Notes under the pieces: generated by a model | Databases searched by the model: none | The model's input: only the letters and a program-made list of their open reading frames with translations | Told to the model about the DNA's origin: nothing | Translations under genes and position numbers: made by a program | Origin: Phenylobacterium sp. | Lineage (GTDB): Bacteria > Pseudomonadota > Alphaproteobacteria > Caulobacterales > Caulobacteraceae | Length of the DNA stretch: 50,174 bases | Reading direction: 5' to 3' | Assembly: GCF_016793225.1 (NCBI RefSeq) | Contig: NZ_JAEUMN010000107.1 | Coordinates: 1-50,174 of the forward strand | Part shown: positions 14,216 to 32,548 of the stretch, one piece after another | How the letters are laid out: each line of letters starts with the position of its first letter | Position numbering within the stretch: the first letter of the stretch is position 1

Positions 14216-14422
14216 ATGGATATCCGCACGGCGCTGGCGCTCTCAGGAGCCTGTCTGGCGGTCGGCGTCCTCGCGGGCTGGCGGGGCGCGCGACCACCGG
14301 ATCCGATGCGGGGGCCGCGCATGGTTCCCTGGCGCTTCCTCATGCTGCTGGCGGTCTCGGGCGCGATCATCTTCGGCTTTGCCGCTGCGCAGCTCGCCGG
14401 GTTCGGGCCGCCGCCTCGCTAA
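14216..14422 (+). CDS. Small two-helix membrane protein, 68 aa
   Basis: The ATG at 14216 opens a 68-residue protein with two hydrophobic helices (about 4-22 and 40-62) joined by a basic, Pro-rich loop ('GARPPDPMRGPRMVPWR'). This size and pattern recur in small Alphaproteobacterial inner-membrane proteins of unknown function. It overlaps the 3' end of the opposite-strand lysyltransferase by 4 bases (14419-14422) and is divergent from podJ, 132 bases away. The function is unknown. Confidence 0.7.
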   Translation: MDIRTALALSGACLAVGVLAGWRGARPPDPMRGPRMVPWRFLMLLAVSGAIIFGFAAAQLAGFGPPPR

Positions 14423-16095
14423 GCCGCCGCCTTGGGCTCTGAGGCGCCGGGCGGGTCGCCGTTGCGCTTCGGTCGTTTCGCGAGGCCGGCCATGCCGCCC
14501 GAGGCCAGGAGGCCGGCGTCGGCCATCAGCCGCGGGATCGCCCATTTGCGCGGCGCGGCCACGAAGCGGGGCTGCCAGGTCGGGTCGTACTTCGCCTTGT
14601 AGTGACGCACGCCCTGGAAGTTGTAGATCTCCTCGCCCCGGTCATAGATCAGCCGGCCGACCCGGCTGAGCGTCGGCGCGAGGGGACGGTCGTCGAGCCC
14701 GGAAAGCGGCGCCATGCCGAAGTCGAACGCGGCGTATCCCTGCTCCTGGCCCCACCGGATGAGCTCCACGAACAGGAAGTCCATGATCCGCGGCGGGCCT
14801 TCGGGCACGAAGCGCATCAGGTCGATGGAGAAGGCGCTGCGGGAGGCCACCGGCCAGAGCGTGGCGAAGGCGATGATCCGGCCGTCCCAGCGCACGACGG
14901 CGATGGGGAACTCCAGCACATAGGGCTCGATGAAGCCGCCGAGGGAAAATCCCTTCTCGCCGCCGGCGTGCGTCTCGAGCCAGGCGTCCGAGATGCGGCG
15001 GAACTCGGGCATGAGGGGCGGGATGTCCGGAGGCTGGATCATCTCGAAGACGGCGCCGTCGTCCTTGGCGCGGCGCCACGCGCGGCGAAGGTTGCCCCGG
15101 CGCGTGCCTTCGATGGTGAAGCTCTCCAGGGGCGCCACCGCGCCCTCGCCCATCTTCTGGATGGCGAAACCCAGCTCGACGATGTCGGGCAGGTCGTCGG
15201 CCTCGAGATTGTAGAAGCCGGGGCGGGCCGCGTGGGCGTCCGCCAGTTCGCGGAACCGCCAGAGCAGTTCCAGGCGCTCGTCGCGCCGCCCCACGGTCGA
15301 GCCCAGGGCGATCCAGCTGCGCCCGCGGACGCCGAACATGAGGAAGCTCTCGCCCGAGGCGGAGAACAGGAACCGCTTGTCGCCGAGGAGGGCCAGGTTC
15401 GACGTGGGCCGCGCGACCTCGGCCTTCGCCAGGATCGCCCTGACGCGGTCCAGGTCGGGGTCTTCCTCGCCCACGATCGGCGGCATCGCGGCCGATCCCA
15501 GCATGCGCCAGACCCCGAAGACGAACAGCAGGATGGCCGCGCCGCCCCAGGCCCGGAGGGAACGCGCGGCGTCCTCGTCCGCCATCACCTGCCACCAGGG
15601 GAATTCGCCGTAGTCCGCGTTCTGGAACGACCACAGGCCGATCATCCCCGCGCCGAGCAGGAAGCAGGCGGCGGAGAACAGCCACCCGGGGGTCACCTCC
15701 ATCCGCGTGAGCGCGGCCTTCCGGGGAAACGCATGGTGGAACGGCGCGAGGGCGACCGCGAGCGCGGCCAGCATGGCCGTCTCCTCCCACACGAAGCCCT
15801 TGATCAGGCTCAGCGGGGCCGCGACCAGCAGGGTCACGATGGTGGCGGCCCAGGCGGCGTCGAGCCGGGCGCGCAGGCCGAAGGCCAGGACCACGAGGAC
15901 CAGCCCGAGGATGCTCGACAGGAAGTGGCTGATCTCGATCAGGATCGCCGGCTCGATCTCCATCACGCGTATGAAGCGCGTGGGGATCGAGGGGCGCGCG
16001 CCGGACGCGAGCAGCAGCACCCCCAAGGCCAGCGTCAGCAGCGCAGCGCCCCAGGGGGCGAGGGCGGTGACGGCGGGATGGCGGAGAAAGCGCAT
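14419..16095 (-). CDS. Phosphatidylglycerol lysyltransferase-like protein (MprF/LpiA, DUF2156)
   Basis: 558 residues. The N-terminal ~220 residues hold about six membrane helices, fewer than the full flippase domain of Staphylococcus MprF. The C-terminal half (about 235-530) is the DUF2156 aminoacyl transferase domain, with 'GDKRFLFSASGESFLMFGVR' opening it and 'RIMDFLFVELIRWGQEQGYA' plus 'FDFGMAPLSGL' near the end. The domain transfers lysine (or another aminoacyl group) from tRNA to phosphatidylglycerol, reducing surface negative charge and protecting against cationic peptides and acid. No atvA/virJ-like partner is adjacent. Its promoter region is shared with the dehydrogenase array, so the palindrome at 16133-16148 could affect both. 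Confidence 0.85.
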   Translation of the reverse strand: MRFLRHPAVTALAPWGAALLTLALGVLLLASGARPSIPTRFIRVMEIEPAILIEISHFLSSILGLVLVVLAFGLRARLDAAWAATIVTLLVAAPLSLIKGFVWEETAMLAALAVALAPFHHAFPRKAALTRMEVTPGWLFSAACFLLGAGMIGLWSFQNADYGEFPWWQVMADEDAARSLRAWGGAAILLFVFGVWRMLGSAAMPPIVGEEDPDLDRVRAILAKAEVARPTSNLALLGDKRFLFSASGESFLMFGVRGRSWIALGSTVGRRDERLELLWRFRELADAHAARPGFYNLEADDLPDIVELGFAIQKMGEGAVAPLESFTIEGTRRGNLRRAWRRAKDDGAVFEMIQPPDIPPLMPEFRRISDAWLETHAGGEKGFSLGGFIEPYVLEFPIAVVRWDGRIIAFATLWPVASRSAFSIDLMRFVPEGPPRIMDFLFVELIRWGQEQGYAAFDFGMAPLSGLDDRPLAPTLSRVGRLIYDRGEEIYNFQGVRHYKAKYDPTWQPRFVAAPRKWAIPRLMADAGLLASGGMAGLAKRPKRNGDPPGASEPKAAA

Positions 16096-16217: not shown

Positions 16218-17417
16218 ATGGCCGATTTCGGCGCCTCGGAGCTCGACGCGTTCGCCCGCGAAGTTCGCGCGGAACTCGCCGCAATGTATCCGCCCGAGCT
16301 GAAGGACGGCAGCGCGCGGACGGACCCGGAAGCGGTCTGGGGCGGTCGCCGCTTCGCCGGCTCGGACGATCCCCAGGTCACCTGGATGAAGCGCGTGGCG
16401 GCCAAGGGCTGGACCACGCCCACGTGGCCCAAGGCCTACGGCGGCGCCGGGCTGTCGGCGGCCGAGGCGCGGGTGGTCGAGAAGGAACTGGCGAAGTACC
16501 GCCCGCCGCTGCTGGCCTTCGGCATCTGGATGCTGGGGCCGGTCCTGCTCGAGTACGCCAACGAGGAGCAGAAGCAGGAGCACCTGCCGAAGATCGTCAA
16601 CGGCGAGATCCGGTGGTGCCAGGGCTACTCCGAGCCGGGGGCCGGCTCGGACCTGGCCGGGCTCGCCACCCGCTGCGAGGACAAGGGCGACCACTGGCTG
16701 ATCAACGGGTCGAAGATCTGGACCAGCTATGCCGATAAGGCGGACTGGTGCTTCTGCCTGGTCCGTACCGATTTTTCGAAGAAGCACGAGGGCATCAGCT
16801 TCGTGCTGATCGATATGGCCTCGCCGGGCGTCGAGACGAGGCCGATCCAGCTGATCTCGGGCGAGAGCCCGTTCTGCGAGACCTTCTTCACGGACGTGAA
16901 GATCCCCAAAGGCAACCTCGTCGGCCGGGTGAACGGCGGGTGGGAGATCGCCAAGCGCCTGCTGCAGTACGAGCGCCAGAACATCTCGGCCGGCTTCGGC
17001 GAGGGCGGCTCGGCGGGCGGCGCCTCGGGCGACCTGGCCTCGATCGCGAAGACCTACGGCGCGGCCGAGGACCCGGACCTGCGCCGCCGGATCACCGAGA
17101 ACAAGATGAACTTCCAGGCGCTGCGGCAGACCATCGCCCGCTCGGCCGCGGAGTCCCGGGCCGGCAACGGCCCCTCGGCGACGACGTCGATCATCAAGTA
17201 CGCGGCCGCCGAGTTCGCCAAGGAACGGTCCGAGCTGATGATCGAGGCGCTGGGCCACCAGGGCCTCGGCTGGGACGGCCCGGGCTTCGAGACGCCCGAG
17301 ATCATGGCCACCCGCGGCTGGCTGCGGACCAAGGCCAACTCGATCGAGGGCGGCACCTCGGAAGTGAACCTCAACGTGGTGGCCAAGCGCGTGCTGGGCC
17401 TGCCCGACCCGAAATAG
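16218..17417 (+). CDS. Acyl-CoA dehydrogenase, large (alpha-type) subunit, array copy 1
   Basis: 399 residues from the ATG at 16218 (MADFGASELDAF, shared by the paralogues; GGGAG upstream). Family marks are 'WCQGYSEPGAGSDLAGL' (about 133-149), the flavin-contact strand 'NGSKIWTS' and 'FCETFFTDVKIP'. Glu252 in 'LLQYERQ' aligns with the isovaleryl-CoA-dehydrogenase catalytic Glu. Glu377 in 'SIEGGTSE' sits where medium-chain enzymes keep theirs, so this copy has both candidate bases. It oxidises an acyl-CoA to the 2,3-enoyl-CoA with FAD, passing electrons to ETF. It is most like the ~400-aa subunits (FadE26/ChsE4 type) of alpha2beta2 dehydrogenases acting on steroid side chains. It is first of six in a row, 10 bases before the next. 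Confidence 0.92.
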   Translation: MADFGASELDAFAREVRAELAAMYPPELKDGSARTDPEAVWGGRRFAGSDDPQVTWMKRVAAKGWTTPTWPKAYGGAGLSAAEARVVEKELAKYRPPLLAFGIWMLGPVLLEYANEEQKQEHLPKIVNGEIRWCQGYSEPGAGSDLAGLATRCEDKGDHWLINGSKIWTSYADKADWCFCLVRTDFSKKHEGISFVLIDMASPGVETRPIQLISGESPFCETFFTDVKIPKGNLVGRVNGGWEIAKRLLQYERQNISAGFGEGGSAGGASGDLASIAKTYGAAEDPDLRRRITENKMNFQALRQTIARSAAESRAGNGPSATTSIIKYAAAEFAKERSELMIEALGHQGLGWDGPGFETPEIMATRGWLRTKANSIEGGTSEVNLNVVAKRVLGLPDPK

Positions 17418-17427
17418 GAGTACCCCG

Positions 17428-18639
17428 ATGGCCGACTTCGGCGGCGCGGACCTGGACGCCTTCCGGGTCGAGGTGCGGGACTGGCTGGACGCCAATTTCC
17501 CGAAGAGCCTGGCGAACGACGTCAACGCCCAGCTGGCCAAGCTGCAGGCGCGGCCCGAGAGCGAGGACGCCCTGAAGTGGCGCCGTGCGCTGGGCGCCAA
17601 GGGCTGGGGCACGCCGACCTGGCCGACGAAATACGGCGGCGGCGGGCTGTCGCGCGATCAGGCGCGGGTGCTGGCCGAGGAGATGGCGAAGGTGGGCGCC
17701 CGCAACCCCATCGGCGGCATGGGCGTGTCGATGTTCGGCCCGACCCTGCTGGAGTACGGCAGCGAGGCGCTGAAGCAGGAGCACTTCCCCGGCATCGTCT
17801 CGGGCGATGTCTGGTGGTGCCAGGGATACTCCGAACCCGGCGCGGGTTCCGACCTTGCGAGCCTGCAGACGCGGGCCGAGGACAAGGGCGACCACTTCCT
17901 CGTAAACGGTTCAAAAATTTGGACTTCTGGAGCTCAGTACGCCGATAGGTGTTACTGCCTGGTGCGTACCGATACCTCAAAGAAGCACGAGGGGATCAGC
18001 TTCTTGCTGATCGACATGAAGGCGCCGGGCGTCGAGGTGCGGCCGATCCTGCTGATCAACGGCACGTCGCCCTTCTGCGAGACCTTCTTCACCGACGTGA
18101 AGGTGCCGAAGGACCAGCTGTTCGGCCCGCTGAACGGCGGCTGGACCATCGCCAAGCGCCTGCTGCAGCACGAGCGCGACGGGATCGGGGCCAGCCTGGG
18201 CGCCGGGAACATCGGCGGGGCCGCGGTCGTGCCGACGGTGATCGAGGCGGCGAAGGCCAATGTGGGGCTGGACGCGTCCGGCCGGTTGGCCGACCCCGAC
18301 CTGCGCCGGCGGGTCACCGAGCACCTGATGGAGAACCGGGCCTTCCAGCTCACCGTCAGCCGCCAGCGCGACGAGGCCAAGGCGGGCAACGGGCCGTCCA
18401 ACCTGGCCGCCGCGATGAAGTACGCCGGCGCCAAGATCGCCCAGGACCGCAACGAGCTGGTGATCGAGAGCCTCGGCCACCAGGGCCTGGGCTGGGACGG
18501 CGAGGGCTTCGGCGCCGGCGAACTGGCCGCCATGCGCTCCATGCTGCGCTCGAAGGCCAATTCCATCGAGGGCGGCAGCTCGGAGATCAACCTCAACGTC
18601 GTCTCGAAAAGGGTTCTCGGTCTGCCGGACCCGAAGTAA
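17428..18639 (+). CDS. Acyl-CoA dehydrogenase, large (alpha-type) subunit, array copy 2
   Basis: 403 residues. Same architecture as copy 1: 'CQGYSEPGAGSDLASL' near 131-146, 'NGSKIWTSGAQYA' near 160-172, 'LLQHERDGIGA' with Glu249 at the IVD-type catalytic position, and 'SIEGGSSEINLN' with Glu381 at the MCAD-type position. The last ~27 residues closely match copy 1, so copies 1 and 2 form the closest pair by that criterion. About 17,900-17,995 the codons turn AT-rich (gta, tca, aaa, att, act, tct), unlike the rest of the gene; the encoded residues remain family-typical. It starts 10 bases after copy 1, so it is surely the same transcript. Confidence 0.92.
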   Translation: MADFGGADLDAFRVEVRDWLDANFPKSLANDVNAQLAKLQARPESEDALKWRRALGAKGWGTPTWPTKYGGGGLSRDQARVLAEEMAKVGARNPIGGMGVSMFGPTLLEYGSEALKQEHFPGIVSGDVWWCQGYSEPGAGSDLASLQTRAEDKGDHFLVNGSKIWTSGAQYADRCYCLVRTDTSKKHEGISFLLIDMKAPGVEVRPILLINGTSPFCETFFTDVKVPKDQLFGPLNGGWTIAKRLLQHERDGIGASLGAGNIGGAAVVPTVIEAAKANVGLDASGRLADPDLRRRVTEHLMENRAFQLTVSRQRDEAKAGNGPSNLAAAMKYAGAKIAQDRNELVIESLGHQGLGWDGEGFGAGELAAMRSMLRSKANSIEGGSSEINLNVVSKRVLGLPDPK

Positions 18640-18687
18640 GGTCTTAGAAGAAGCGGTACGAGAAGCCGCGAATAGGGAGAAACGGCG

Positions 18688-19887
18688 ATGGCGGATTCCG
18701 GCGGCGCCCTGGACGCGTTCCGCGCCGAGGCGCGGGCGTGGCTCGAGGAGAACTATCCGAAGTCGCTGCGCGAGGACCGGCGCGCCGGCGAGCGCGCCAT
18801 GGTCGGCGGCTTCAAGCCCGAGGGCGACCACCTGCTCTGGAAGCAGCGCATGGCCGAGAAGGGCTGGGGCACGCCGACCTGGCCGAAGAAGTACGGCGCG
18901 GGCGGCCTGTCGCCGGCCGAGGCGCGGGTGCTGCAGCAGGAGATGGAGCGCATCGGGGCCTACAACCCGATGGTGGGCATGGGGCTCTCCATGTTCGGCC
19001 CGACGCTGCTGGAATACGGCACCGAGGAACAGAAGCAGCGGCACATTCCGCCCATCGTTCGTGGTGAAATCCGCTGGTGCCAAGGGTATTCGGAGCCCGG
19101 CGCAGGGTCTGACCTGGCGTCTCTGCAGACAAAGTGCGAGGACGCCGGAGATCACTGGAAGATCAACGGCCAAAAGATCTGGACAAGCGGAGCGCAATAC
19201 GCCGACTGGTGCTTCTGTCTTGTTCGAACCGACACCTCGAAGAAGCATGAAGGCATCAGCTTCGTCCTGATCAACATGCACCAGCCGGGCGTCGAGACGC
19301 GGCCGATCCGGCTGATCGCCGGGTCGTCGCCCTTCTGCGAGACCTTCTTCACCGACGCGCGGGCCGAGAAGGACGACATGGTCGGGCCGCTGAACGGCGG
19401 CTGGACCATCGGCAAGCGCCTGCTGCAGCACGAGCGCTCGGGCCAGGGCGGCGGCCGGATGACCGGCGGCGCCTCGATCTCGGACCTCGCCAAGAAGTAC
19501 GTGGGCCTCGACGACGAGGGCCGGCTGGCCGACCTGGACCTGCGCTCGCGGGTCGTGGCCAACCAGATGAACGCCAAGGCCCACGCGCTGACCATCGTCC
19601 GCGCCATCGAGGAGTCGAAGGGCAACGTGAATCCCTCGGCGACGACCTCGGTGATGAAGAACTCCGGCACCTGGATCGGCCAGGAGCGGGCCGAGCTGGC
19701 GCTGGAGATCATGGGCCACCAGGGCCTGGGCTGGGAGGGCGAGGCCTTCGACAAGGACGAGCTGGAGGCGGTGCGCAACTGGCTGTCGGGCAAGGCCTGG
19801 ACCATCTTCGGCGGCAGCCAGGAAATCCAGTCGAACATCGTCTCGAAGCGGATCCTGGGCCTGCCGGACACGACGCAGGCGGTGTGA
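18688..19887 (+). CDS. Acyl-CoA dehydrogenase, large (alpha-type) subunit, array copy 3
   Basis: 399 residues. It carries 'CQGYSEPGAGSDLASL' (131-146), 'NGQKIWTSGAQYADWC', 'FCETFFTDARAEKDD' and 'LLQHERSGQ' with Glu249 at the IVD-type catalytic position. At the MCAD-type position it has Phe374 in 'TIFGGSQEIQSN' instead of Glu. The 'DARAEK' stretch and the C-terminal 'IFGGSQE' are shared with copy 5, so these two are close paralogues. A run of AT-ending codons covers about 19,055-19,265, the same protein segment as in copies 2 and 4. A 48-base gap with a GGGAGAAA ribosome site precedes the start. Confidence 0.92.
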   Translation: MADSGGALDAFRAEARAWLEENYPKSLREDRRAGERAMVGGFKPEGDHLLWKQRMAEKGWGTPTWPKKYGAGGLSPAEARVLQQEMERIGAYNPMVGMGLSMFGPTLLEYGTEEQKQRHIPPIVRGEIRWCQGYSEPGAGSDLASLQTKCEDAGDHWKINGQKIWTSGAQYADWCFCLVRTDTSKKHEGISFVLINMHQPGVETRPIRLIAGSSPFCETFFTDARAEKDDMVGPLNGGWTIGKRLLQHERSGQGGGRMTGGASISDLAKKYVGLDDEGRLADLDLRSRVVANQMNAKAHALTIVRAIEESKGNVNPSATTSVMKNSGTWIGQERAELALEIMGHQGLGWEGEAFDKDELEAVRNWLSGKAWTIFGGSQEIQSNIVSKRILGLPDTTQAV

Positions 19888-19889
19888 CA

Positions 19890-20036
19890 TCCGTCATGGC
19901 CCGGCTTGTCCGGGCCATCCACTGGGCTGTGAGGTGACGGTTAGAGTGCGGGGCGCCGCCATCCGTCGCCTTCGACTCACAGCCCAATGGGTCCCCCGGA
20001 CAATCCCCCGGACGAGCCGGGGGAGGGGGATGACGA
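19890..20036. repeat. REP-like palindromic pair between dehydrogenase copies 3 and 4
   Basis: The gap holds a short palindrome (GGCCCGG-CTTGT-CCGGGCC region, 19897-19915). It also holds a stem TGGGCTGTGAG (19923-19933), whose exact reverse complement CTCACAGCCCA lies at about 19976-19986. A second GC palindrome (CCCCCGGACGAGCCGGGGG region) ends near 20036 in GGGGATGAC. It belongs with the 'GTCATCCCG..CGGGA(T)CC' elements at 21297 and 43192. It is non-coding. Confidence 0.6.
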
Positions 20037-20079
20037 CGGGCAGCGGCGACGATGGGCTGGGAACAGGGAGGAGCTGGGC

Positions 20080-21282
20080 ATGGCTGACTTCGGCGGACCT
20101 GATCTGACGGCGTTCCGGGGCGAGGTCCGGGACTGGCTGGCGGCCAGCTTCCCCGCGTCGCTGAAGGGGCAGGCGCCTCCGGAGGGGCGGGAGCTGACGC
20201 CGGATCAGGACGCGTGGCGCAGGGCCATGGGCGAGAAGGGGTGGGGCGTGCCCACCTGGCCCAAGGCCTATGGCGGCGGCGGGCTGTCGCGGGCGGAGGC
20301 GAGGGTCATCGCCGAGGAGCTGGCCGCCATCGGGGCCTACAATCCGATCGGCGGCATGGGCGTCATGATGTTCGGGCCCACGCTGCTGGAGTACGGCAAC
20401 GAAGAACAGAAGCAGCGCCACATCCCGCCGATCGTCCGCGCCGACCTGCGCTGGTGCCAGGGCTTCTCGGAGCCCGGCGCGGGCAGTGATCTGGCGTCGC
20501 TACAGACCAAGGCGGAAGACAAGGGCGATCACTGGCTTGTCAGCGGCCAGAAGATCTGGACAAGCGGAGCCCATACGGCCGACTGGTGCTTCTGCCTCGT
20601 CAGGACCGACAACACGAAGAAGCATGAAGGCATCAGCTTTCTGCTGATCGACATGCGCTCTCCCGGCGTGGAGACGCGGCCGATACTGCTGATCAACGGC
20701 ACGACGCCCTTCTGCGAGACCTTCTTCACCGACGTGAAGGTTCCGAAGGAGAACCTCGTGGGGCCGCTGAACGGCGGCTGGACCATCGCCAAGCGGCTGC
20801 TGCAGCACGAGCGGCAGGGCATCTCGGGCGCCAACCAGACGGGCGCCCCGGGCGTGACGCCGGGCGGGCCCATCGCGGCGAAGGCGGCGGCCTATGTGGG
20901 CCTCGACGACACCGGCCGGCTGGCCGACCCCGACCTGCGCCGCCGGCTGACCGAGCACCTGATGGAGGAGCGGGCGTTCCAGCTCACCGGCCGGCGCGCG
21001 GCCGAGGAGGCGCGGTCGAACTCGGGACCGTCGGCGGCCAGCTCGGTGCTGAAGAACGTCGGCTCGAAGGTGCGGCAGGACAAGGCCGAGCTGACCGTCG
21101 AGCTCCTGGGGCACCAGGGCCTGGGCTGGACGGGCGAGGCGTTCCACGCGGACGAGTTGGGCGCCACGCGGGCCTGGCTGCGCGGCAAGAGCGGGACGAT
21201 CGCGGGCGGGTCCTGGGAGGTCCAGCTCAACATCATCTCGAAGCGCATCCTGGGACTGCCGGAGGCGACGCAGAAGGGGTAA
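20080..21282 (+). CDS. Acyl-CoA dehydrogenase, large (alpha-type) subunit, array copy 4
   Basis: 400 residues from the ATG at 20080 (MADFGGPDLTAFRG; GGGAGGAG about 8 bases upstream). The open frame before it is only the repeat element. Family marks are 'CQGFSEPGAGSDLASL', 'SGQKIWTSGAHTADWC' and 'LLQHERQGISG' with Glu244 at the IVD-type catalytic position. At the MCAD-type position it has Ala375 ('TIAGGSWEVQLN'), so Glu244 should be the only base. A milder patch of AT-ending codons lies at about 20,485-20,690. Palindromic repeats on both sides separate this copy from copies 3 and 5, so transcript processing between copies is possible. Confidence 0.92.
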   Translation: MADFGGPDLTAFRGEVRDWLAASFPASLKGQAPPEGRELTPDQDAWRRAMGEKGWGVPTWPKAYGGGGLSRAEARVIAEELAAIGAYNPIGGMGVMMFGPTLLEYGNEEQKQRHIPPIVRADLRWCQGFSEPGAGSDLASLQTKAEDKGDHWLVSGQKIWTSGAHTADWCFCLVRTDNTKKHEGISFLLIDMRSPGVETRPILLINGTTPFCETFFTDVKVPKENLVGPLNGGWTIAKRLLQHERQGISGANQTGAPGVTPGGPIAAKAAAYVGLDDTGRLADPDLRRRLTEHLMEERAFQLTGRRAAEEARSNSGPSAASSVLKNVGSKVRQDKAELTVELLGHQGLGWTGEAFHADELGATRAWLRGKSGTIAGGSWEVQLNIISKRILGLPEATQKG

Positions 21283-21296
21283 TGTCGAGCTTTCCA

Positions 21297-21380
21297 GTCA
21301 TCCCGCGGCTTGTCCGCGGGATCCATGCCGAGGCCGAGCGCGGCGGAACGATGGGTCCCGCGGACAAGCCGCGGGATGAC
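21297..21380. repeat. REP-like inverted pair between dehydrogenase copies 4 and 5
   Basis: Two 30-base arms, 21297-21326 and 21351-21380, are reverse complements with a single mismatch. Each arm is itself a palindrome, CCCGCGG-CTTGT-CCGCGGG. The element begins GTCATCCC and ends GGGATGAC, as in similar elements elsewhere in this window. It fills most of the 131-base gap and should fold into a strong hairpin in RNA. Confidence 0.8.
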
Positions 21381-21413
21381 GGTCAGAGATTTTAGCGAGG
21401 ACGGATATTTCCG

Positions 21414-22619
21414 ATGGCTGATTTTGGTGGCGGTGCGGATCTCGACACCTTCCGCAAGGAGGTCCGCGAGTGGGTGGAGGCGAATTTCCCCGCCTCGCTC
21501 AAGGGCAAGCCCAACCCGATGGCGGGCGAAGGCCGGGCCGAGAAGCCCACGGCCGATCAGGAAGCCTGGCGCAAGGCCGTCGGCGAGAAGGGCTGGGGCA
21601 CGCCCACCTGGCCGAAGGCCTACGGCGGCGGCGGGCTCTCGCCGGCCGAGGCGCGCGTGATCCAGGGCGAGTTCGCCCGGGCCGGCGCCTACAACCCCAT
21701 CGGCGGCATGGGCGTCATGATGTTCGGCCCGACGCTGCTGGAATACGGCACCGAGGCGCAGAAGAACGAGCACATCCCGCCCATCTGCCGCGGCGACCTG
21801 CAGTGGTGCCAAGGGTTCAGCGAGCCGGGCGCCGGCTCCGACCTCGCGGCGCTGTCGACGAAGGCCGAGGACAAGGGCGATTACTTCGCCATCACCGGCC
21901 AGAAGGTGTGGACAAGCGGCGCGCAGTACGCCGACTGGTGCTTCTGCCTGGTGCGGACCGACCCGTCGAAGAAGCACGAGGGCATCTCGTTCGTGCTGAT
22001 CGACATGCACCAGCCGGGCGTCGAGGTGCGGCCGATCGTCCTGATCAACGGCCAGGCGCCCTTCTGCGAGACCTTCTTCACCGACGCGCGCGCCGAGAAG
22101 AAGGACCTGGTAGGCCCGCTGAACGGCGGCTGGACCATCGCCAAGCGCCTGCTGCAGCACGAGCGCAGCGGCATCTCGGGCATGGGCGGCGGCATGATGG
22201 GCCCCTCGCTCTCGGACCTCGCCAAGAAGTACGTGGGCGTGGACGAGGAAGGCCGCATCGACGACCAGGACCTGCGCAACCGGATCATCCGCAACGCCAT
22301 GGAGACCAAGGTCTTCCAGCAGACCGCGTTCCGCGTGATGGCCGAAAGCCGGGGCAATTCCGGTCCGTCGGCCGCCACCTCGATCATGAAGAACGCCGGC
22401 ACCTGGATCGCCCAGGAGCGCCACGAGCTGACGCTGGAGATCATGGGCCACCAGGGCCTGGGCTGGGAGGGCGAGGCCTTCGACAAGTCCGAGCTCGAGA
22501 TCGTCCGCGCCTGGCTCTACGGCAAGGCCTTCACGATCTTCGGCGGCAGCCAGGAGGTGCAGTCGAACATCGTCTCCAAGCGCATCCTGGGCTTGCCTGA
22601 CCTTACGCAAGCGAAGTGA
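21414..22619 (+). CDS. Acyl-CoA dehydrogenase, large (alpha-type) subunit, array copy 5
   Basis: 401 residues. It shows 'CQGFSEPGAGSDLAAL', 'TGQKVWTSGAQYADWC', 'FCETFFTDARAEKKD' and 'LLQHERSGISG' with Glu250 at the IVD-type catalytic position. The MCAD-type position is Phe376 ('TIFGGSQEVQSN'), as in copy 3. Codon use is uniformly GC-ending here, unlike copies 2-4. It follows the strong palindrome at 21297-21380 and precedes the element at 22626-22762. Confidence 0.92.
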   Translation: MADFGGGADLDTFRKEVREWVEANFPASLKGKPNPMAGEGRAEKPTADQEAWRKAVGEKGWGTPTWPKAYGGGGLSPAEARVIQGEFARAGAYNPIGGMGVMMFGPTLLEYGTEAQKNEHIPPICRGDLQWCQGFSEPGAGSDLAALSTKAEDKGDYFAITGQKVWTSGAQYADWCFCLVRTDPSKKHEGISFVLIDMHQPGVEVRPIVLINGQAPFCETFFTDARAEKKDLVGPLNGGWTIAKRLLQHERSGISGMGGGMMGPSLSDLAKKYVGVDEEGRIDDQDLRNRIIRNAMETKVFQQTAFRVMAESRGNSGPSAATSIMKNAGTWIAQERHELTLEIMGHQGLGWEGEAFDKSELEIVRAWLYGKAFTIFGGSQEVQSNIVSKRILGLPDLTQAK

Positions 22620-22625
22620 TGGATT

Positions 22626-22762
22626 GACCACGGACCACACGGACAACACGGACGAACGCGTGACAGGACCAGCCGCGGGAAACTTGAGTGGAGGCGCGCC
22701 GACGGCGCGCGGTCCTGCCAGCGGCATGTCGATTGTCGGTGTGGTCCGTGTGGTCCGTGGTC
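22626..22762. repeat. 137-bp symmetric element with GACCACGGACCACACGGAC ends
   Basis: GACCACGGACCACACGGAC at 22626-22644 is the exact reverse complement of the sequence at 22744-22762. Inside, an AGGACC/GGTCCT stem and a small GC palindrome continue the symmetry. When translated, such elements give runs like 'TTDHTDHTD', a familiar artefact of dispersed intergenic elements in many genomes. It fills the gap between copy 5 and the small-subunit dehydrogenase. Confidence 0.75.
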
Positions 22763-22831
22763 GAAATTATTCTGGTCGCCGCGCCGGCGGCGGACTTTAT
22801 TGAAAACGCACAGAATTTCACGAGGAAAGAC

Positions 22832-23920
22832 ATGGCCGTACTGACCGAAGAACAGAGCATGCTGCGGGACTCGGCGAAGAGCTGGGTCCAGGAGAAGTCG
22901 CCCGTCACCGCCTTCCGCAAGATGCGCGATAGCGGGGCCGAGCTGGGCTACGACGTGGCCGCCTGGAACGAGATGGCCGAGATGGGCTGGGCCGGGGTGA
23001 TCATCCCCGAGGAGTACGGCGGCTCGAACTTCGGCTACCTGAGCCTGGGCCTGGTGCTCGAGGAGCTGGGCCGCACGCTCACCGCCTCCCCGCTGATCGC
23101 CTCGGGCCTGGCCGCGGCCTCGGCCCTGATCCTGGGCGGCAACGACGCCCAGAAGGGCGAGTGGCTGCCGAAGATCGCCGACGGCTCGGCCGTGGCGACC
23201 CTGGCGGTCGACGAGGGCCCGCACCACCGGCCCGACAAGGTCGAGGCGACCGTCTCGGGCGGCAAGCTGACCGGCAAGAAGACCTTCGTGCTGGAGGGCA
23301 TGGCCGCCAACGTCTTCGTGGTCTCGGCCAAGGAGAACGGCCAGGTCGAGCTCTTCCTGGTGAAGGCCGACGATCCGGGCGTGTCGCGCCAGAAGCTGTC
23401 GCTCGCCGACAGCCGCGGGGCGGCCAATGTCGAGTTCAACGGCGCGGCGGCCGAGAAGCTCTCGGGCGGCGCGGCGCTGCTCGAGAAGGTGCTGGACCGG
23501 GCGCGGGCGGGCATCTCCGCCGAGATGCTGGGCGCCGCCACGCAGGCCTTCGAGACCACGCTGGACTACCTGAAGACCCGCGTGCAGTTCGGCCAAGTCA
23601 TCGGCAGCTTCCAGGCCCTGCAGCACCGCGCGGCCAAGATGTTCACCGAGCTGGAGCTGTCGCGCTCGGCCGTCGAGGCGGCGCTGGCGGCCATCGACGC
23701 GGACTCGCCCGACGTGCCCGAGCTGGCCAGCCTGGCGAAGGCCAAGATGGGCGACACCTTCCACCTGATCTCGAACGAGATGGTGCAGATGCACGGCGGC
23801 ATCGGCATGACCGACGCCCACGACGCGGGCTTCTACCTGAAGCGCGCCCGCGCGGCCGAGGCGGCCTACGGGAACCAGGCGTTCCACCGCGACCGCTACG
23901 CGCGGATCCAGGGGTACTGA
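22832..23920 (+). CDS. Acyl-CoA dehydrogenase, small (beta-type) partner subunit
   Basis: 362 residues from the ATG at 22832 (MAVLTEEQSMLRDSAKSW; AGGAAAGA upstream). It keeps the fold marks 'YGGSNFGYLSLGLVLEELGR', 'RVQFGQVIGSFQALQHRAAKM' (flavin and dimer contacts) and 'MVQMHGGIGMTDAHD'. It lacks both catalytic positions. The stretch aligned with 'HERxGI' of the large copies reads 'RARAGI' (Ala224), and the chain ends at 'RIQGY' without the late Glu loop. The size and losses match the FadE27/ChsE5-type subunit of alpha2beta2 acyl-CoA dehydrogenases. It is likely the shared structural partner of the upstream large subunits; that pairing is inference. A rho-independent terminator follows 28 bases later. 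Confidence 0.88.
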   Translation: MAVLTEEQSMLRDSAKSWVQEKSPVTAFRKMRDSGAELGYDVAAWNEMAEMGWAGVIIPEEYGGSNFGYLSLGLVLEELGRTLTASPLIASGLAAASALILGGNDAQKGEWLPKIADGSAVATLAVDEGPHHRPDKVEATVSGGKLTGKKTFVLEGMAANVFVVSAKENGQVELFLVKADDPGVSRQKLSLADSRGAANVEFNGAAAEKLSGGAALLEKVLDRARAGISAEMLGAATQAFETTLDYLKTRVQFGQVIGSFQALQHRAAKMFTELELSRSAVEAALAAIDADSPDVPELASLAKAKMGDTFHLISNEMVQMHGGIGMTDAHDAGFYLKRARAAEAAYGNQAFHRDRYARIQGY

Positions 23921-26480: not shown

Positions 26481-27680
26481 ATGCGTAGCTTGTTCCTAGC
26501 GGTCGCTTCGGTGGCTCTGTTGACGGCGACGTCGGCGGCGGCCAGCTCGATCAGCAACATCAACGCCACCGCGGGTTCGCGGGCGAACGTTCCGGGCAGC
26601 GGGGAGTGCGTGTCCTCCGTCTGCAACAACAACATCGACCTGCCGGGCGGCGAGGGCGTGCTGCGCAACGCCCCGGGCTCGACCGGCGGGGCGGCTTACA
26701 ACTCGTTCGTGAACATTGGGCCCTCGTCGATCTTCTTCGAGAGCTCGAACTCGACGTCCGAGGGGAATTTCAGCTCGTTCCAGTCGTTCTCGACGGTGAG
26801 CTTCGACTTCCTCAACTCCGAGGACGCGCCGGTGGCGTTCCACTCGGAGATCACGCCCCAGGGGCTGGGCATGTACCTGGCCGACACCAGCGGCGGCTGC
26901 CTCTTCACCAACAGCTGCGTCCAGGTCTCGCACCACGTGGCGCAGCTGTCCGACCTGTACGCGCCCGGCGAGACGAACGGGATCATCGGCGCCGTCGGCT
27001 TCCAGTTCGACATCCTGGACAACGGCGACACGCTCTACACCCTGTCGGGCTTCCTGGCGCTGGCGCGCAACGCGCTGGGCTGCGACGGCTACTGCGTGGT
27101 CGACGCCCTGGGCGAGGAGGCCTTCTACGAGGGCGACTTCCTGGTGGAGGCCACCGGCGCGCGATCGCTGAACGGCTTCGCGCGGCAGACCGACCCGACC
27201 GACACCTCGGCCATCGCGTTCGGCTGGGACGCCACCCCGGTGCTGCTGTCGCTGCTGCCCGGCGAGCACACCATCGAGTACCGCACCTCGGTGTTCAGCA
27301 TCACCAACACCGACTGCATGGGCATGACGAGCGAGATCTGCCTGGTGGCCTACTCGGGCTTCGGTGATCCCATCGGCCGGGGCGGCGGGATCGACGCGCT
27401 CCGCGGCGACCTCCGCGCCGGCATGTCGTTCGGCAACATGCCGGGCGGCCTGGGCGGCTTCGACGCCGAGCCGTTCCACGACCTGCCGGGCGGGCTGATC
27501 CAGGGCCTGAACTTCTCGCCGGCCCGCTTCTCGCTGCCGGTGTTCCGCAACGGCGTGCTGACCTACGACTCCAGCACGAGCGGCGCGGTGCCGGAGCCCG
27601 GCACGTGGGCCCTGATGATCCTCGGCTTCGGCGCGATGGGAGCGGCGTTGCGGCGCCGTCGCATTCCGGCGCATATCTAG
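26481..27680 (+). CDS. PEPxxWA-type PEP-CTERM exported protein
   Basis: 399 residues with a signal peptide (MRSLFLAVASVALLTATSAAA). The C-terminal sorting tail 'AVPEPGTWALMILGFGAMGA' is followed by a basic RRRR stretch: PEP motif, membrane helix and Arg cluster, the tripartite signal read by exosortase/PEP-CTERM systems. The subtype PEPxxWA is typical of Caulobacterales and Sphingomonadales. The exported part is Ser/Asn-rich at first ('SSISNINATAGSRANVPG') and carries at least eight Cys, several close together ('NTDCMGMTSEICLVAY'), suggesting disulfides in the cell exterior. No exosortase gene is in the window. Its stop is 7 bases before the TIR-TPR gene, so the two are likely one transcript. 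Confidence 0.88.
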   Translation: MRSLFLAVASVALLTATSAAASSISNINATAGSRANVPGSGECVSSVCNNNIDLPGGEGVLRNAPGSTGGAAYNSFVNIGPSSIFFESSNSTSEGNFSSFQSFSTVSFDFLNSEDAPVAFHSEITPQGLGMYLADTSGGCLFTNSCVQVSHHVAQLSDLYAPGETNGIIGAVGFQFDILDNGDTLYTLSGFLALARNALGCDGYCVVDALGEEAFYEGDFLVEATGARSLNGFARQTDPTDTSAIAFGWDATPVLLSLLPGEHTIEYRTSVFSITNTDCMGMTSEICLVAYSGFGDPIGRGGGIDALRGDLRAGMSFGNMPGGLGGFDAEPFHDLPGGLIQGLNFSPARFSLPVFRNGVLTYDSSTSGAVPEPGTWALMILGFGAMGAALRRRRIPAHI

Positions 27681-30265: not shown

Positions 30266-31477
30266 ATGACCCGTTTCGCCATCGCCCTTCTGGCCGCCAC
30301 CGCGCTTGCGGGCGCCGCCGGCGCGAAGACGCTCACCGTCACCCCGGGCCCCGACGCCCAGGAGCGCATCCAGACCGCGCTGCTCGACGCCAAGCCGGGC
30401 GACGTCGTCGAACTCGCCGCAGGCCGCTACGACCTCACCGACGGCCTGTCGCTGGACGTCGACGACGTGGTGGTGAAGGGCGCGGGCCCCGACAAGACCG
30501 TGCTCTCCTTCAAGGGCCAGAAGGGCGCGGGCGAGGGCCTGCTCGTGACGTCCGACCGGGTGACCCTGCGCGACTTCGCCGTCGAGGACACCAAGGGCGA
30601 CGGGTTGAAGTCGAAGGGCTCGGACCAGATCAGCTTCATCAACGTGCGCGTCGAGTGGACCGGCGGCCCGAAGGAGACCAACGGAGCCTACGGCGTCTAT
30701 CCGGTCTCATCCTCCAACGTGCTGGTGGACCGGACCCTCGTGCGGGGCGCGTCCGACGCCGGCATCTACGTGGGGCAGTCGAAGAACATCGTGGTCAAGC
30801 GCAGCCGCGCCGAGTTCAACGTCGCCGGGATCGAGATCGAGAACTCGATGAACGCCGACGTGTTCGACAACGTGGTCACCCGCAACACCGGCGGCATCCT
30901 GGTGTTCGACCTGCCGAACCTGCCGGTCATGGGCGGCCATTCGCACCGCGTGTTCCGCAACCAGGTGGTCGACAACGACACGCCGAACTTCGCGCCGAAG
31001 GGCAACATCGTCGCCGGCGTCCCCGTGGGCGCGGGCATCATGGTGATGGCCAACCGCGACGTGCACGTCTTCGAGAACCGCATCGACGGCAACCAGACCG
31101 CCGCCGTCATGCTGGTCAGCTACACCCAGAAGTTCGACGACAAGGCCTACAATCCCCTGCCCCGCGACATCGTGGTGCGCGACAACCAGCTGGGCCGGAA
31201 CGCCTGGGACCCGCAGTTCAGCGGCGGGCAGGTCATCAAGGCCATGCTGGGCGGCAAGGTCCCGCCGATCATGTGGGACGGGGTCACCACCCACGCCCAG
31301 AGCCCGGGCGTCGCCAAGGTCCGCATCTCGGACGGCCCGGTGCTGAACCTCAACCTCCCGGCGCCGGGGCAGGTGGAGGCCGCGAAGCCCGCCATCACGC
31401 CCACCGTGGGCGACGTGCACGTCGCCGAGCCGAAGGCCGTCGTGCTGCCCAAGACGCAGGCCGACCTTGGCGCCTGA
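30266..31477 (+). CDS. Exported parallel beta-helix protein (TIGR03805 type)
   Basis: 403 residues with a signal peptide (MTRFAIALLAATALAGAAGA). The mature protein is a right-handed beta-helix: 'ERIQTALLDAKPGDVVELAAG' caps it, then repeated short strands follow ('NVLVDRTLVRGASDAGIYVG', 'IVVKRSRAEFNVAGIEIENS', 'NADVFDNVVTRNTGGILVFD'). Sequence and neighbour match TIGR03805, a family found almost only beside the SO_2930/HNE_0200-type diheme cytochrome, encoded here 15 bases downstream. No catalytic residues of pectate lyases are evident to me, so a binding or scaffold role is as likely as polysaccharide cleavage. It is the first gene of a three-gene set. Confidence 0.88.
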   Translation: MTRFAIALLAATALAGAAGAKTLTVTPGPDAQERIQTALLDAKPGDVVELAAGRYDLTDGLSLDVDDVVVKGAGPDKTVLSFKGQKGAGEGLLVTSDRVTLRDFAVEDTKGDGLKSKGSDQISFINVRVEWTGGPKETNGAYGVYPVSSSNVLVDRTLVRGASDAGIYVGQSKNIVVKRSRAEFNVAGIEIENSMNADVFDNVVTRNTGGILVFDLPNLPVMGGHSHRVFRNQVVDNDTPNFAPKGNIVAGVPVGAGIMVMANRDVHVFENRIDGNQTAAVMLVSYTQKFDDKAYNPLPRDIVVRDNQLGRNAWDPQFSGGQVIKAMLGGKVPPIMWDGVTTHAQSPGVAKVRISDGPVLNLNLPAPGQVEAAKPAITPTVGDVHVAEPKAVVLPKTQADLGA

Positions 31478-31492
31478 GTCCGATCCGGTGTG

Positions 31493-32548
31493 ATGCGTCT
31501 GGGTCTTGCCCTTCTCGCGGCGCTGGCCAGCCTCGGCGCCGCCCCGAAGCCCGAGCCGGTCGCGCTCGAGGCGCTGCTGGCCGAAGCGCCCGCCCCCAGG
31601 CTCAGCGACTACCGCCTGTTCGCCGACGCTGCCGGCCGGCGGCCGAACGGGGGCGTCACGCCCTACGCCCTCAACACGCCGCTGTTCACCGACTACGCCG
31701 AGAAGTTCCGCTACCTCTACCTGCCGCCGGGGGCCAAGGCGCGCTACCGCGCCGACGGCGTCTTCGACTTCCCGGTGGGCGCCGCCCTGGTGAAGACCTT
31801 CGCCTATCCGGCCGACCTGCGGCGCCCGGACCAGCAGGTCCGCTACCTCGAGACGCGGCTCCTGGTGCGCAAGGCGGACGGCTGGGTCGCCCTGGCCTAC
31901 GTCTGGAACGCCGAGCAGACCGAGGCCGTGCTGAAGCGCGCCGGCGCGCGCTTCGAGGTCGCGTTCACCGACGGCCAGGGCGCGCAGCGGCGCATCGACT
32001 ACGCCGTCCCCAACCAGAACCAGTGCAAGGAGTGCCACCAGCTCGACAGGACGCTGCAACCGGTCGGGCCCAAGGCGCGCAACCTCAACGGCGACTTCGC
32101 CTACGCCACCGGCCCGGAGAACCAGCTCGCGCACTGGACCCGCCAGGGCCTGCTGGCCGGCGCGCCGCCGCCGGGGCGGGCGCCGCGCACCGTACGCTGG
32201 GACGACCCGGCCGAGCCGCTCGAGGCGCGGGCGCGCGCCTACCTCGACGCCAACTGCGCCCACTGCCACCAGCCGCGCGCCATCGCGTCCAACTCGGGCC
32301 TCTTCCTCAACGTGGAGGAGACGCGGCCCTCCCACCTCGGCGTCGGCAAGGGGCCGGTGGCGGCCGGCCGCGGCTCGGGCGGGCTGAGCGTGGGCATCGC
32401 GCCCGGGCGGCCGGACGCCTCGATCCTCGCGTTCCGCATGGCCTCGAACGAGCCCGGCGTGATGATGCCCGAACTGGGGCGCTCGCTCGTCCATGACGAG
32501 GGCGTCCGCCTGATCCGCGAGTGGATCGCCGCCATGCCGGCCTCATGA
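31493..32548 (+). CDS. Exported diheme c-type cytochrome (SO_2930 / TIGR03806 family)
   Basis: 351 residues from the ATG at 31493 (a GTG lies one codon earlier), with a signal peptide MRLGLALLAALASLGAAP. Two haem-attachment motifs are present: C178-K-E-C-H182 ('NQNQCKECHQLD') and C255-A-H-C-H259 ('DANCAHCHQPRA'). Between and around them are the family's conserved blocks 'YALNTPLFTDYAEKFRYLYL' and 'GLLAGAPPP'. The protein is periplasmic and should carry electrons, perhaps to or from a substrate handled with the beta-helix partner. The partnership of this cytochrome with TIGR03805 is a known conserved pair of unknown purpose. Its TGA overlaps the next start codon. Confidence 0.9.
   Translation: MRLGLALLAALASLGAAPKPEPVALEALLAEAPAPRLSDYRLFADAAGRRPNGGVTPYALNTPLFTDYAEKFRYLYLPPGAKARYRADGVFDFPVGAALVKTFAYPADLRRPDQQVRYLETRLLVRKADGWVALAYVWNAEQTEAVLKRAGARFEVAFTDGQGAQRRIDYAVPNQNQCKECHQLDRTLQPVGPKARNLNGDFAYATGPENQLAHWTRQGLLAGAPPPGRAPRTVRWDDPAEPLEARARAYLDANCAHCHQPRAIASNSGLFLNVEETRPSHLGVGKGPVAAGRGSGGLSVGIAPGRPDASILAFRMASNEPGVMMPELGRSLVHDEGVRLIREWIAAMPAS

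What the first reader, a model, noticed from the sequence alone, without database searches (positions are those of the whole stretch)
16218..23920. Five paralogous large acyl-CoA dehydrogenase subunits feeding one inactive-looking small subunit
Five consecutive genes encode ~400-aa dehydrogenases that share N-termini (MADxGG), the core and a conserved Glu in 'L-L-Q-(H/Y)-E-R' (residues 252, 249, 249, 244, 250), the IVD-type catalytic position. The sixth gene (362 aa) has Ala at that position and ends before the MCAD-type Glu loop. This is the split seen in alpha2beta2 dehydrogenases such as ChsE4-ChsE5 of steroid side-chain catabolism. The usual arrangement is one alpha with one beta; here five alphas precede one beta, suggesting exchangeable catalytic subunits with different chain preference around a common partner. 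Copies 1-2 also keep a Glu at the MCAD-type position (377, 381), while copies 3-5 have Phe, Ala and Phe, so the array may hold two mechanistic classes.
Basis: partly seen in the sequence, partly recalled or inferred. Interest (0 to 1): 0.75.

Follow-up and report, generated by a model that had tools for sequence, protein, structure and literature searches.

The report
Five enzyme subunits, one shared partner
A Phenylobacterium-type bacterium carries five sister genes for the catalytic half of a fatty-acid- or steroid-oxidising enzyme beside a single gene for the other half, and comparison with relatives suggests that one common partner serves several exchangeable catalytic halves.

Summary
Five tandem genes (A1-A5) encode catalytic alpha subunits of the alpha2beta2 acyl-CoA dehydrogenase (ACAD) type; the sixth (B6) encodes the beta. 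The FAD site is split reciprocally: among 272 alphas and 101 betas, alphas keep the flavin and catalytic motifs and lack the ADP-end motifs, and betas the reverse, with two exceptions on each side for one motif. Nearest solved alpha relatives are ChsE4 and Tcur3483.

The array is conserved. In 53 named loci that reach the same upstream gene, 15 have five alphas, 29 four, 5 three, 2 two, 1 one, and 1 looks frameshifted; each has one beta. Other genera mostly have one A1-type alpha and one beta. Among disjoint pairs, beta diverges faster than A1 in single pairs (8 of 9) but slower in arrays (18 of 18). Whether arrays grew from pairs or shrank to them is not settled by the trees.

The extra Glu of A1/A2 is invariant and sits where Tcur3483 was mutated (G363A). 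Most likely one beta is the needed partner of several alphas. Complexes and substrates are untested.

The parts
16218..17417 (+). A1, catalytic alpha subunit; Glu252 (IVD position) and Glu377 (MCAD position); the type found in single pairs of other genera
17428..18639 (+). A2, catalytic alpha subunit; Glu249 and Glu381
18688..19887 (+). A3, catalytic alpha subunit; Glu249, Phe374 at the MCAD position
20080..21282 (+). A4, catalytic alpha subunit; Glu244, Ala375 at the MCAD position; an upstream ATG at 19987 is possible but MADFGG matches the paralogues
21414..22619 (+). A5, catalytic alpha subunit; Glu250, Phe376 at the MCAD position
22832..23920 (+). B6, beta subunit; no catalytic Glu, keeps R-x-Q-F-G and Q-x-x-G-G-x-G (FAD ADP half-site)
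14419..16095 (-). MprF-like (LPG_synthase_C) gene, divergent, the upstream syntenic anchor in many relatives; not part of the enzyme

Best explanation
The array encodes a set of alpha2beta2 acyl-CoA dehydrogenases built on one common beta. Each alpha brings the flavin-ring site, acyl-CoA pocket and catalytic Glu (IVD position). B6 brings the other half of the FAD site (the ADP end) and no base. An alpha therefore needs beta to hold FAD and work. Most likely a single A1-type alpha with one beta expanded by tandem duplication of alpha while beta stayed single, so that beta is shared among A1-A5 and perhaps with a dispersed sister alpha. The alphas differ at the residue reported (by title) to tune side-chain specificity in Tcur3481-Tcur3483, so they probably act on different acyl-CoAs. 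Shown: gene order, reciprocal motif loss, conservation, slower beta in arrays. Inferred: complexes, sharing, direction of copy-number change, substrates.
For: Reciprocal half-sites: flavin and catalytic motifs in 272 of 272 alphas and 0 of 101 betas; R-x-Q-F-[GND] in 0 of 272 and 101 of 101; Q-x-x-G-G-x-G in 2 of 272 and 99 of 101 (the same after removing repeats, 269 and 97). PMC11153573 (section 12 read) states that in ChsE4-ChsE5 alpha binds the isoalloxazine and carries the Glu and substrate site, and beta contacts the FAD ADP-ribose. The four best PDB folds for A5 are alpha chains of 4x28 and 6wy8/6wy9; ranks 1, 2 and 4 for B6 are chains of 6wy8/6wy9. One full-length beta per locus in 80, 20 and 20 loci, all found through beta. 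Over 149 family genomes beta and alpha co-occur in 82, beta alone in 6, alpha alone in 1. Beta's distance relative to MprF is lower in arrays (disjoint medians 0.35-0.46 against 1.17, Mann-Whitney P 1.3e-4) while A1's does not differ (P 0.74).
Against: No complex was predicted or measured. The arrays are one radiation, so the rate difference is close to one event; in all-pairs comparisons beta is slower than a given alpha in 69 to 105 of 105 pairs, not always. Betas in 1:1 pairs or alone inside the array part of the beta tree are not consistently faster (L162 0.29, L160 0.34, L158 0.36, L155 0.49, L101 0.47 against an array median of 0.40; that clade's support is 0.27), and root-to-tip distance is longer, not shorter, for array betas (1.76 against 1.50). 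The root of the alpha tree depends on one distant sequence, L164. A profile search with beta ranks nine other ACADs above Tcur3481, and ChsE5 is not among the 20 matches shown. Alpha-type genes without a neighbouring beta exist. The A5 model is poor after residue 376.
Confidence: 0.72

Rival explanations
1. B6 pairs with only one array alpha (A1, as in single pairs, or the adjacent A5); the other alphas use other betas or work as homo-oligomers.
For: Other genera have one A1 with one B. Alpha-type genes without a neighbouring beta exist in the genome and in three one-contig relatives, so alphas may not need a partner in cis.
Against: The array alphas all lack the ADP half-site. The few other betas found in the genome lie beside their own alpha (C114, C162, and C153 with C123 perhaps its other end). 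The array alphas are kept together with one beta in many species and are under purifying selection.
Confidence: 0.18
2. The alphas are redundant gene-dosage copies with the same substrate.
For: 54-71% identity on one strand; copy number varies from one to five between species.
Against: Copies are old and mostly match the same copy in other species better than each other. Clades differ by nearly fixed residues next to the catalytic Glu and at the MCAD position.
Confidence: 0.08
3. B6 is vestigial and the alphas are ordinary homotetrameric ACADs.
For: All subunits share the ACAD fold.
Against: The half-site split is near absolute, beta is conserved, and it co-occurs with alpha in 82 of the 89 genomes that hold either.
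Confidence: 0.02

Closest known systems
ChsE4-ChsE5 (FadE26-FadE27, PDB 4x28)
   Same: alpha with IVD-position Glu and flavin site, beta without Glu that binds the FAD ADP end; array alphas keep a Pro in the helix-E stretch (269 of 272 by a crude test), which in A5 aligns with ChsE4 Pro89, tied to a large cavity in PMC11153573
   Different: one alpha to one beta; Gly at the MCAD position; cholesterol side-chain substrate, not shown here
Tcur3481-Tcur3483 steroid ACAD (PDB 6wy8, 6wy9)
   Same: nearest solved relatives by sequence and among the top folds
   Different: one alpha to one beta; Gly363 where array alphas have Glu, Phe/Tyr or Ala (mapped through the G363A chain)
PimC-PimD pimeloyl-CoA dehydrogenase (TIGR03204/TIGR03203)
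   Same: best NCBIfam models for alphas and beta; large and small subunits
   Different: scores of 261-294 and 182 bits lie far below the cut-offs of 624 and 653
IpdE1-IpdE2 (NF050027 for IpdE2)
   Same: B6 also matches the IpdE2 model at 153 bits
   Different: below the cut-off of 450

Membership tests
alpha2beta2 heterotetrameric ACAD | two different ACAD subunits from adjacent genes | tested here: met
alpha2beta2 heterotetrameric ACAD | alpha has the catalytic Glu and flavin motifs | tested here: met
   272 of 272
alpha2beta2 heterotetrameric ACAD | beta lacks the catalytic Glu | tested here: met
   L-x-x-E-R in 0 of 101; residue Ala 79, Val 14, Thr 2, Gly 1, not read by the pattern in 5
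alpha2beta2 heterotetrameric ACAD | beta supplies the FAD ADP half-site that alpha lacks | tested here: met
   motif level only; the motifs' place in the FAD site is recalled from MCAD structures, the subunit roles are from PMC11153573
alpha2beta2 heterotetrameric ACAD | closest solved structures are of this type | tested here: met
   alpha. Beta: yes; the profile search ranks nine other ACADs higher
alpha2beta2 heterotetrameric ACAD | 2:2 tetramer with two FAD in solution | not testable with these tools
   needs purified protein or a complex prediction
alpha2beta2 heterotetrameric ACAD | one alpha gene per beta gene (usual, not strictly defining) | tested here: not met
   four or five alphas per beta in 44 of 53 bounded loci
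PimCD pimeloyl-CoA dehydrogenase | score above the curated cut-offs of TIGR03204/TIGR03203 | tested here: not met
steroid side-chain ACAD | steroid-CoA substrate, steroid gene neighbourhood | tested here: inconclusive
   no conserved catabolic neighbour recognised, but ORF clusters were only partly annotated; substrate not testable; steroid genes not sought genome-wide

The most novel reading that the evidence does not exclude
One beta is a common FAD-anchoring partner for a whole set of alphas, the five in the array and dispersed sister alphas such as the lone C15 gene, so that mixed tetramers (two different alphas on two betas) form. The enzyme's specificity is then assembled combinatorially, and A1/A2 with two active-site Glu form a separate catalytic class.
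Probability: 0.35. Interest if true: 0.8.

Novelty: new variant of a known kind. Interest (0 to 1): 0.6.

Why it matters
In the passages I read, heterotetrameric ACADs are described as one alpha with one beta. A lineage in which alpha number varies from one to five around an unduplicated beta gives a natural series for asking why the alpha2beta2 form exists: beta as a fixed cofactor scaffold may free alpha to diversify. The array also holds natural variants (Glu, Phe/Tyr, Ala) at the very residue that was mutated in Tcur3483 G363A.

Tried and rejected
A substrate from the gene neighbourhood: upstream the MprF-like gene recurs (53 of 80 loci) and a Sel1-repeat protein; no downstream ORF cluster recurs in more than 16 of 80 loci apart from frames overlapping beta, and the few that I annotated differ (a zinc alcohol dehydrogenase, an ECF-type sigma factor, BacA). 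The PhyH and class III alcohol dehydrogenase genes after B6 are not conserved neighbours (the latter in 1 of 80, the former in none). Rejected that the array is an assembly artefact: a one-contig genome (G099, locus L163) holds A1-A2-A3-A5-B. A clean reversal of beta's rate in non-array betas was sought and not found. A whole-protein motif test on the window's own ACADs was too loose: four alphas outside the array (C55, the second of C184, C26, C114) show R-x-x-F somewhere and several homomeric ones miss a pattern, so the own-genome sorting rests on the aligned columns, read by eye. Phenylobacterium J367 (45 matches, many partial) and J426 (L060) look frameshifted; neither was used for rates, and L060 is kept apart in the census. 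iqtree timed out and FastTree replaced it. A first census placed alphas by frame start, missed one locus and undercounted another; one search places them by stop codon and replaces it.

Tree direction: the first tree groups A1 with A2 against A3-A5; with single pairs and L164 added, A2-A5 form a clade apart from A1; without L164 the outgroup joins on the A3 side and A1+A2+single pairs group.

Literature: eight searches listed nothing that I could recognise, from titles and starts of abstracts, as several alphas sharing one beta among ACADs; only openly licensed papers are held, and two of the original ChsE papers are not. Papers used: PMC11153573 (passages and section 12), PMC8399759 and PMC12543098 (passages). 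The 2020 'key glycine' paper was seen as a title in the reference list of PMC8399759 only.
Full report
WHAT IS THERE. The six ORFs are as described. NCBIfam's best models are the large subunit of pimeloyl-CoA dehydrogenase for A1-A5 and the small subunit for B6, all far below their cut-offs. Among solved structures A5 is nearest to Tcur3483 and ChsE4 and B6 to Tcur3481 and ChsE5: the alpha and beta chains of two solved alpha2beta2 ACADs. A fold search with predicted models agrees for alpha (top four hits are chains of 4x28 and 6wy8/6wy9, TM 0.68-0.73) and largely for beta (ranks 1, 2 and 4 are 6wy8/6wy9 chains, 4x28_C is rank 43). A profile search for beta puts 4l1f first and Tcur3481 tenth, and ChsE5 is not among the 20 shown. 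The beta model is good (pLDDT 89.5); the alpha model is fair (82.6) and unreliable from residue 377 on.

HALF-SITES. In ChsE4-ChsE5 the alpha subunit binds the flavin ring and holds the Glu, and beta contacts the ADP-ribose of FAD (PMC11153573, section 12). The sequences show the same split. Flavin motifs and the catalytic L-x-x-E-R are in 272 of 272 alphas and 0 of 101 betas. R-x-Q-F-[GND] is in 0 of 272 alphas and 101 of 101 betas; Q-x-x-G-G-x-G is in 2 of 272 and 99 of 101. A few sequences repeat (L156 is L073 again); without repeats the counts are 269 and 97 with the same result. Fourteen partial alphas were left out (258 found, 244 full-length). Of twenty further single pairs, one alpha shows Q-x-x-G-G-x-G and two beta frames show K-x-W-T-[ST] somewhere; the rest agree. 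That these motifs line the FAD site is recalled from MCAD structures.

CONSERVATION. The window's genus is Phenylobacterium by kinship: the same-genus genome G007 holds its 92% identical beta at the coordinates of the contig titled Phenylobacterium sp. RIFCSPHIGHO2. The usual order is A1-A2-A3(-A4)-A5-B; 15 of 80 loci have all five alphas and 29 have four. In 26 loci the gene taken as A3 is A3-like by best match but is not placed in the window's A3 clade by the tree. Exceptions: L073 has a further alpha after beta, L096 and L111 have beta before alpha, five loci show beta only, L060 is broken, and many are cut by contig ends. In the 53 loci that reach the MprF-like gene, 15 have five alphas, 29 four, 5 three, 2 two, 1 one and 1 (L060) one full and three partial; each has one beta (which replaces). 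L056 shows an extra 44-aa beta-like piece. In 149 genomes of the family, beta (E at most 1e-90) is in 88 and an A5-like alpha (E at most 1e-120) in 83; both are in 82, the six beta-only genomes are of genus g3 with 44-47% identity, one genome (G037) has alpha only, and 60 have neither by subtraction. Shared ancestry alone could give some of this.

ORIGIN. Other genera mostly hold one A1-type alpha and one beta. In the 16 loci of genus g22 taken the pair lies beside the MprF-like gene in all 16; of the loci L147, L148, L157 and L165 also do, L151 probably, while L146, L150, L153, L159 and L161 show no MprF-like gene in the stretch taken, L154 only a partial match some 9 kb away, and the four g20 loci L182-L185 none. 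L149 (g19) has two alphas and one beta. In a few genomes a second locus carries an A3-type alpha with its own beta (L155, L158, L160, L162). The simplest reading is growth from A1-B. The trees do not settle it: with the distant A1-B pair L164 included, A2-A5 form one clade (0.997-1.0) apart from A1 and the single pairs; without L164, or in the first tree, A1 and A2 group (0.999) and the root moves. Either way alpha number varies and beta does not. All six genes are under purifying selection (dN/dS 0.11-0.46).

TWO CLASSES. The IVD-position Glu is present in every full-length alpha (249 with the window's). The MCAD-position residue is Glu in 57 of 57 A1 and 45 of 45 A2 sequences, and never Glu in A3 (62: Tyr 35, Phe 27), A4 (26: Ala 20, Tyr 5, Phe 1) or A5 (59: Tyr 37, Phe 22), labels by best match; it is Glu in 20 of 20 further single-pair A1. 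Which state is older depends on the root. The solved chain 6wy9_A, titled the G363A variant, shows Ala exactly in this column (chain position 383, which I take as 363 plus a 20-residue tag; the wild-type alignment stops before it). The title of the paper on that variant says that a key glycine modulates side-chain specificity. The residue before the catalytic Glu is also clade-typical: Tyr in A1, Phe in A2 (His in the window's A2), His in A3-A5.

RATE TEST. If beta serves several alphas it should be more constrained. With the neighbouring MprF-like protein as yardstick, disjoint closest pairs give a median beta/A1 distance ratio of 1.49 in single pairs (21 loci, 9 pairs, beta faster in 8) and 0.51-0.61 in three array groups (37 loci, 18 pairs, beta faster in none), P 3.5e-5. 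Beta/MprF falls from 1.17 to 0.35-0.46 (P 1.3e-4); A1/MprF does not differ (P 0.74). I used 14 of 15 five-alpha, 19 of 29 four-alpha and 4 of 6 A1-A3-A5-B loci, chosen by hand and by having a full MprF-like frame, and dropped pairs with MprF distance of 0.03 or less. An earlier all-pairs test pointed the same way less uniformly: beta slower in 1 of 55 single-pair comparisons and in 69-105 of 105 in the larger array groups. The pairs are within one radiation, so this is nearly one event. Betas outside arrays but inside that part of the beta tree are not clearly faster, and root-to-tip distance is longer for array betas. It is suggestive, not proof.

GENOME-WIDE. Of 37 ACAD matches in the genome, 14 are alpha-type by aligned motifs read by eye (five array, nine elsewhere). 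Four or five are beta-type: B6, C114, C162, and C153 and C123, which may be two ends of one gene cut by contigs. C98, at a contig edge, was left unclassified. C15 is an alpha nested in the array clade with no other match to the small-subunit model on its contig. Three one-contig relatives show the same excess by my reading of scores and adjacency, not motif-checked: 13-14 alphas to 5-6 betas. Either lone alphas borrow a beta in trans or they work without one; the data do not decide.

VERDICT. A conserved many-alpha, one-beta variant of the alpha2beta2 ACAD family. Sharing of beta is the best reading; substrates are unknown.

Noticed in passing
window 21283-21413 and 22620-22831 (and by eye 19888-20079): The gaps A4/A5 and A5/B hold paired inverted repeats; the A4/A5 motif has 30 matches in the genome and the A5/B motif 10, against 0 for reversed controls. 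A similar palindrome in the A3/A4 gap was seen by eye only. They look like REP-type elements inside a putative operon.
   Followed up: partly
L091 10028-11134 and L095: Beta genes with no array alpha found in the 21-kb locus, in assemblies that also hold another beta locus (L063, L078); L091 lies near a P450-like gene (NF041802, below cut-off) and an ORF that looks like a TonB receptor by eye. L114 is likewise without alpha.
   Followed up: partly
L111 and L096: Beta precedes alpha, in a MAG titled Ramlibacter and in an alphaproteobacterial MAG; transfer or binning error.
   Followed up: no
window 30266-32548: Parallel beta-helix protein (TIGR03805) followed by an SO2930-family diheme cytochrome c (TIGR03806), both above cut-off.
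   Followed up: no
window 26481-27680: PEPxxWA-CTERM sorting-domain protein.
   Followed up: no
window 14419-16095: MprF-like protein that matches only positions 316-839 of the 841-position MprF model, below its cut-off, so it seems to lack the N-terminal part.
   Followed up: no
own genome C162, C55, C184 (two), C186, C26: A clade of six PimC-like alphas (support 0.998) with only one PimD-like beta (C162), dispersed rather than in an array.
   Followed up: partly
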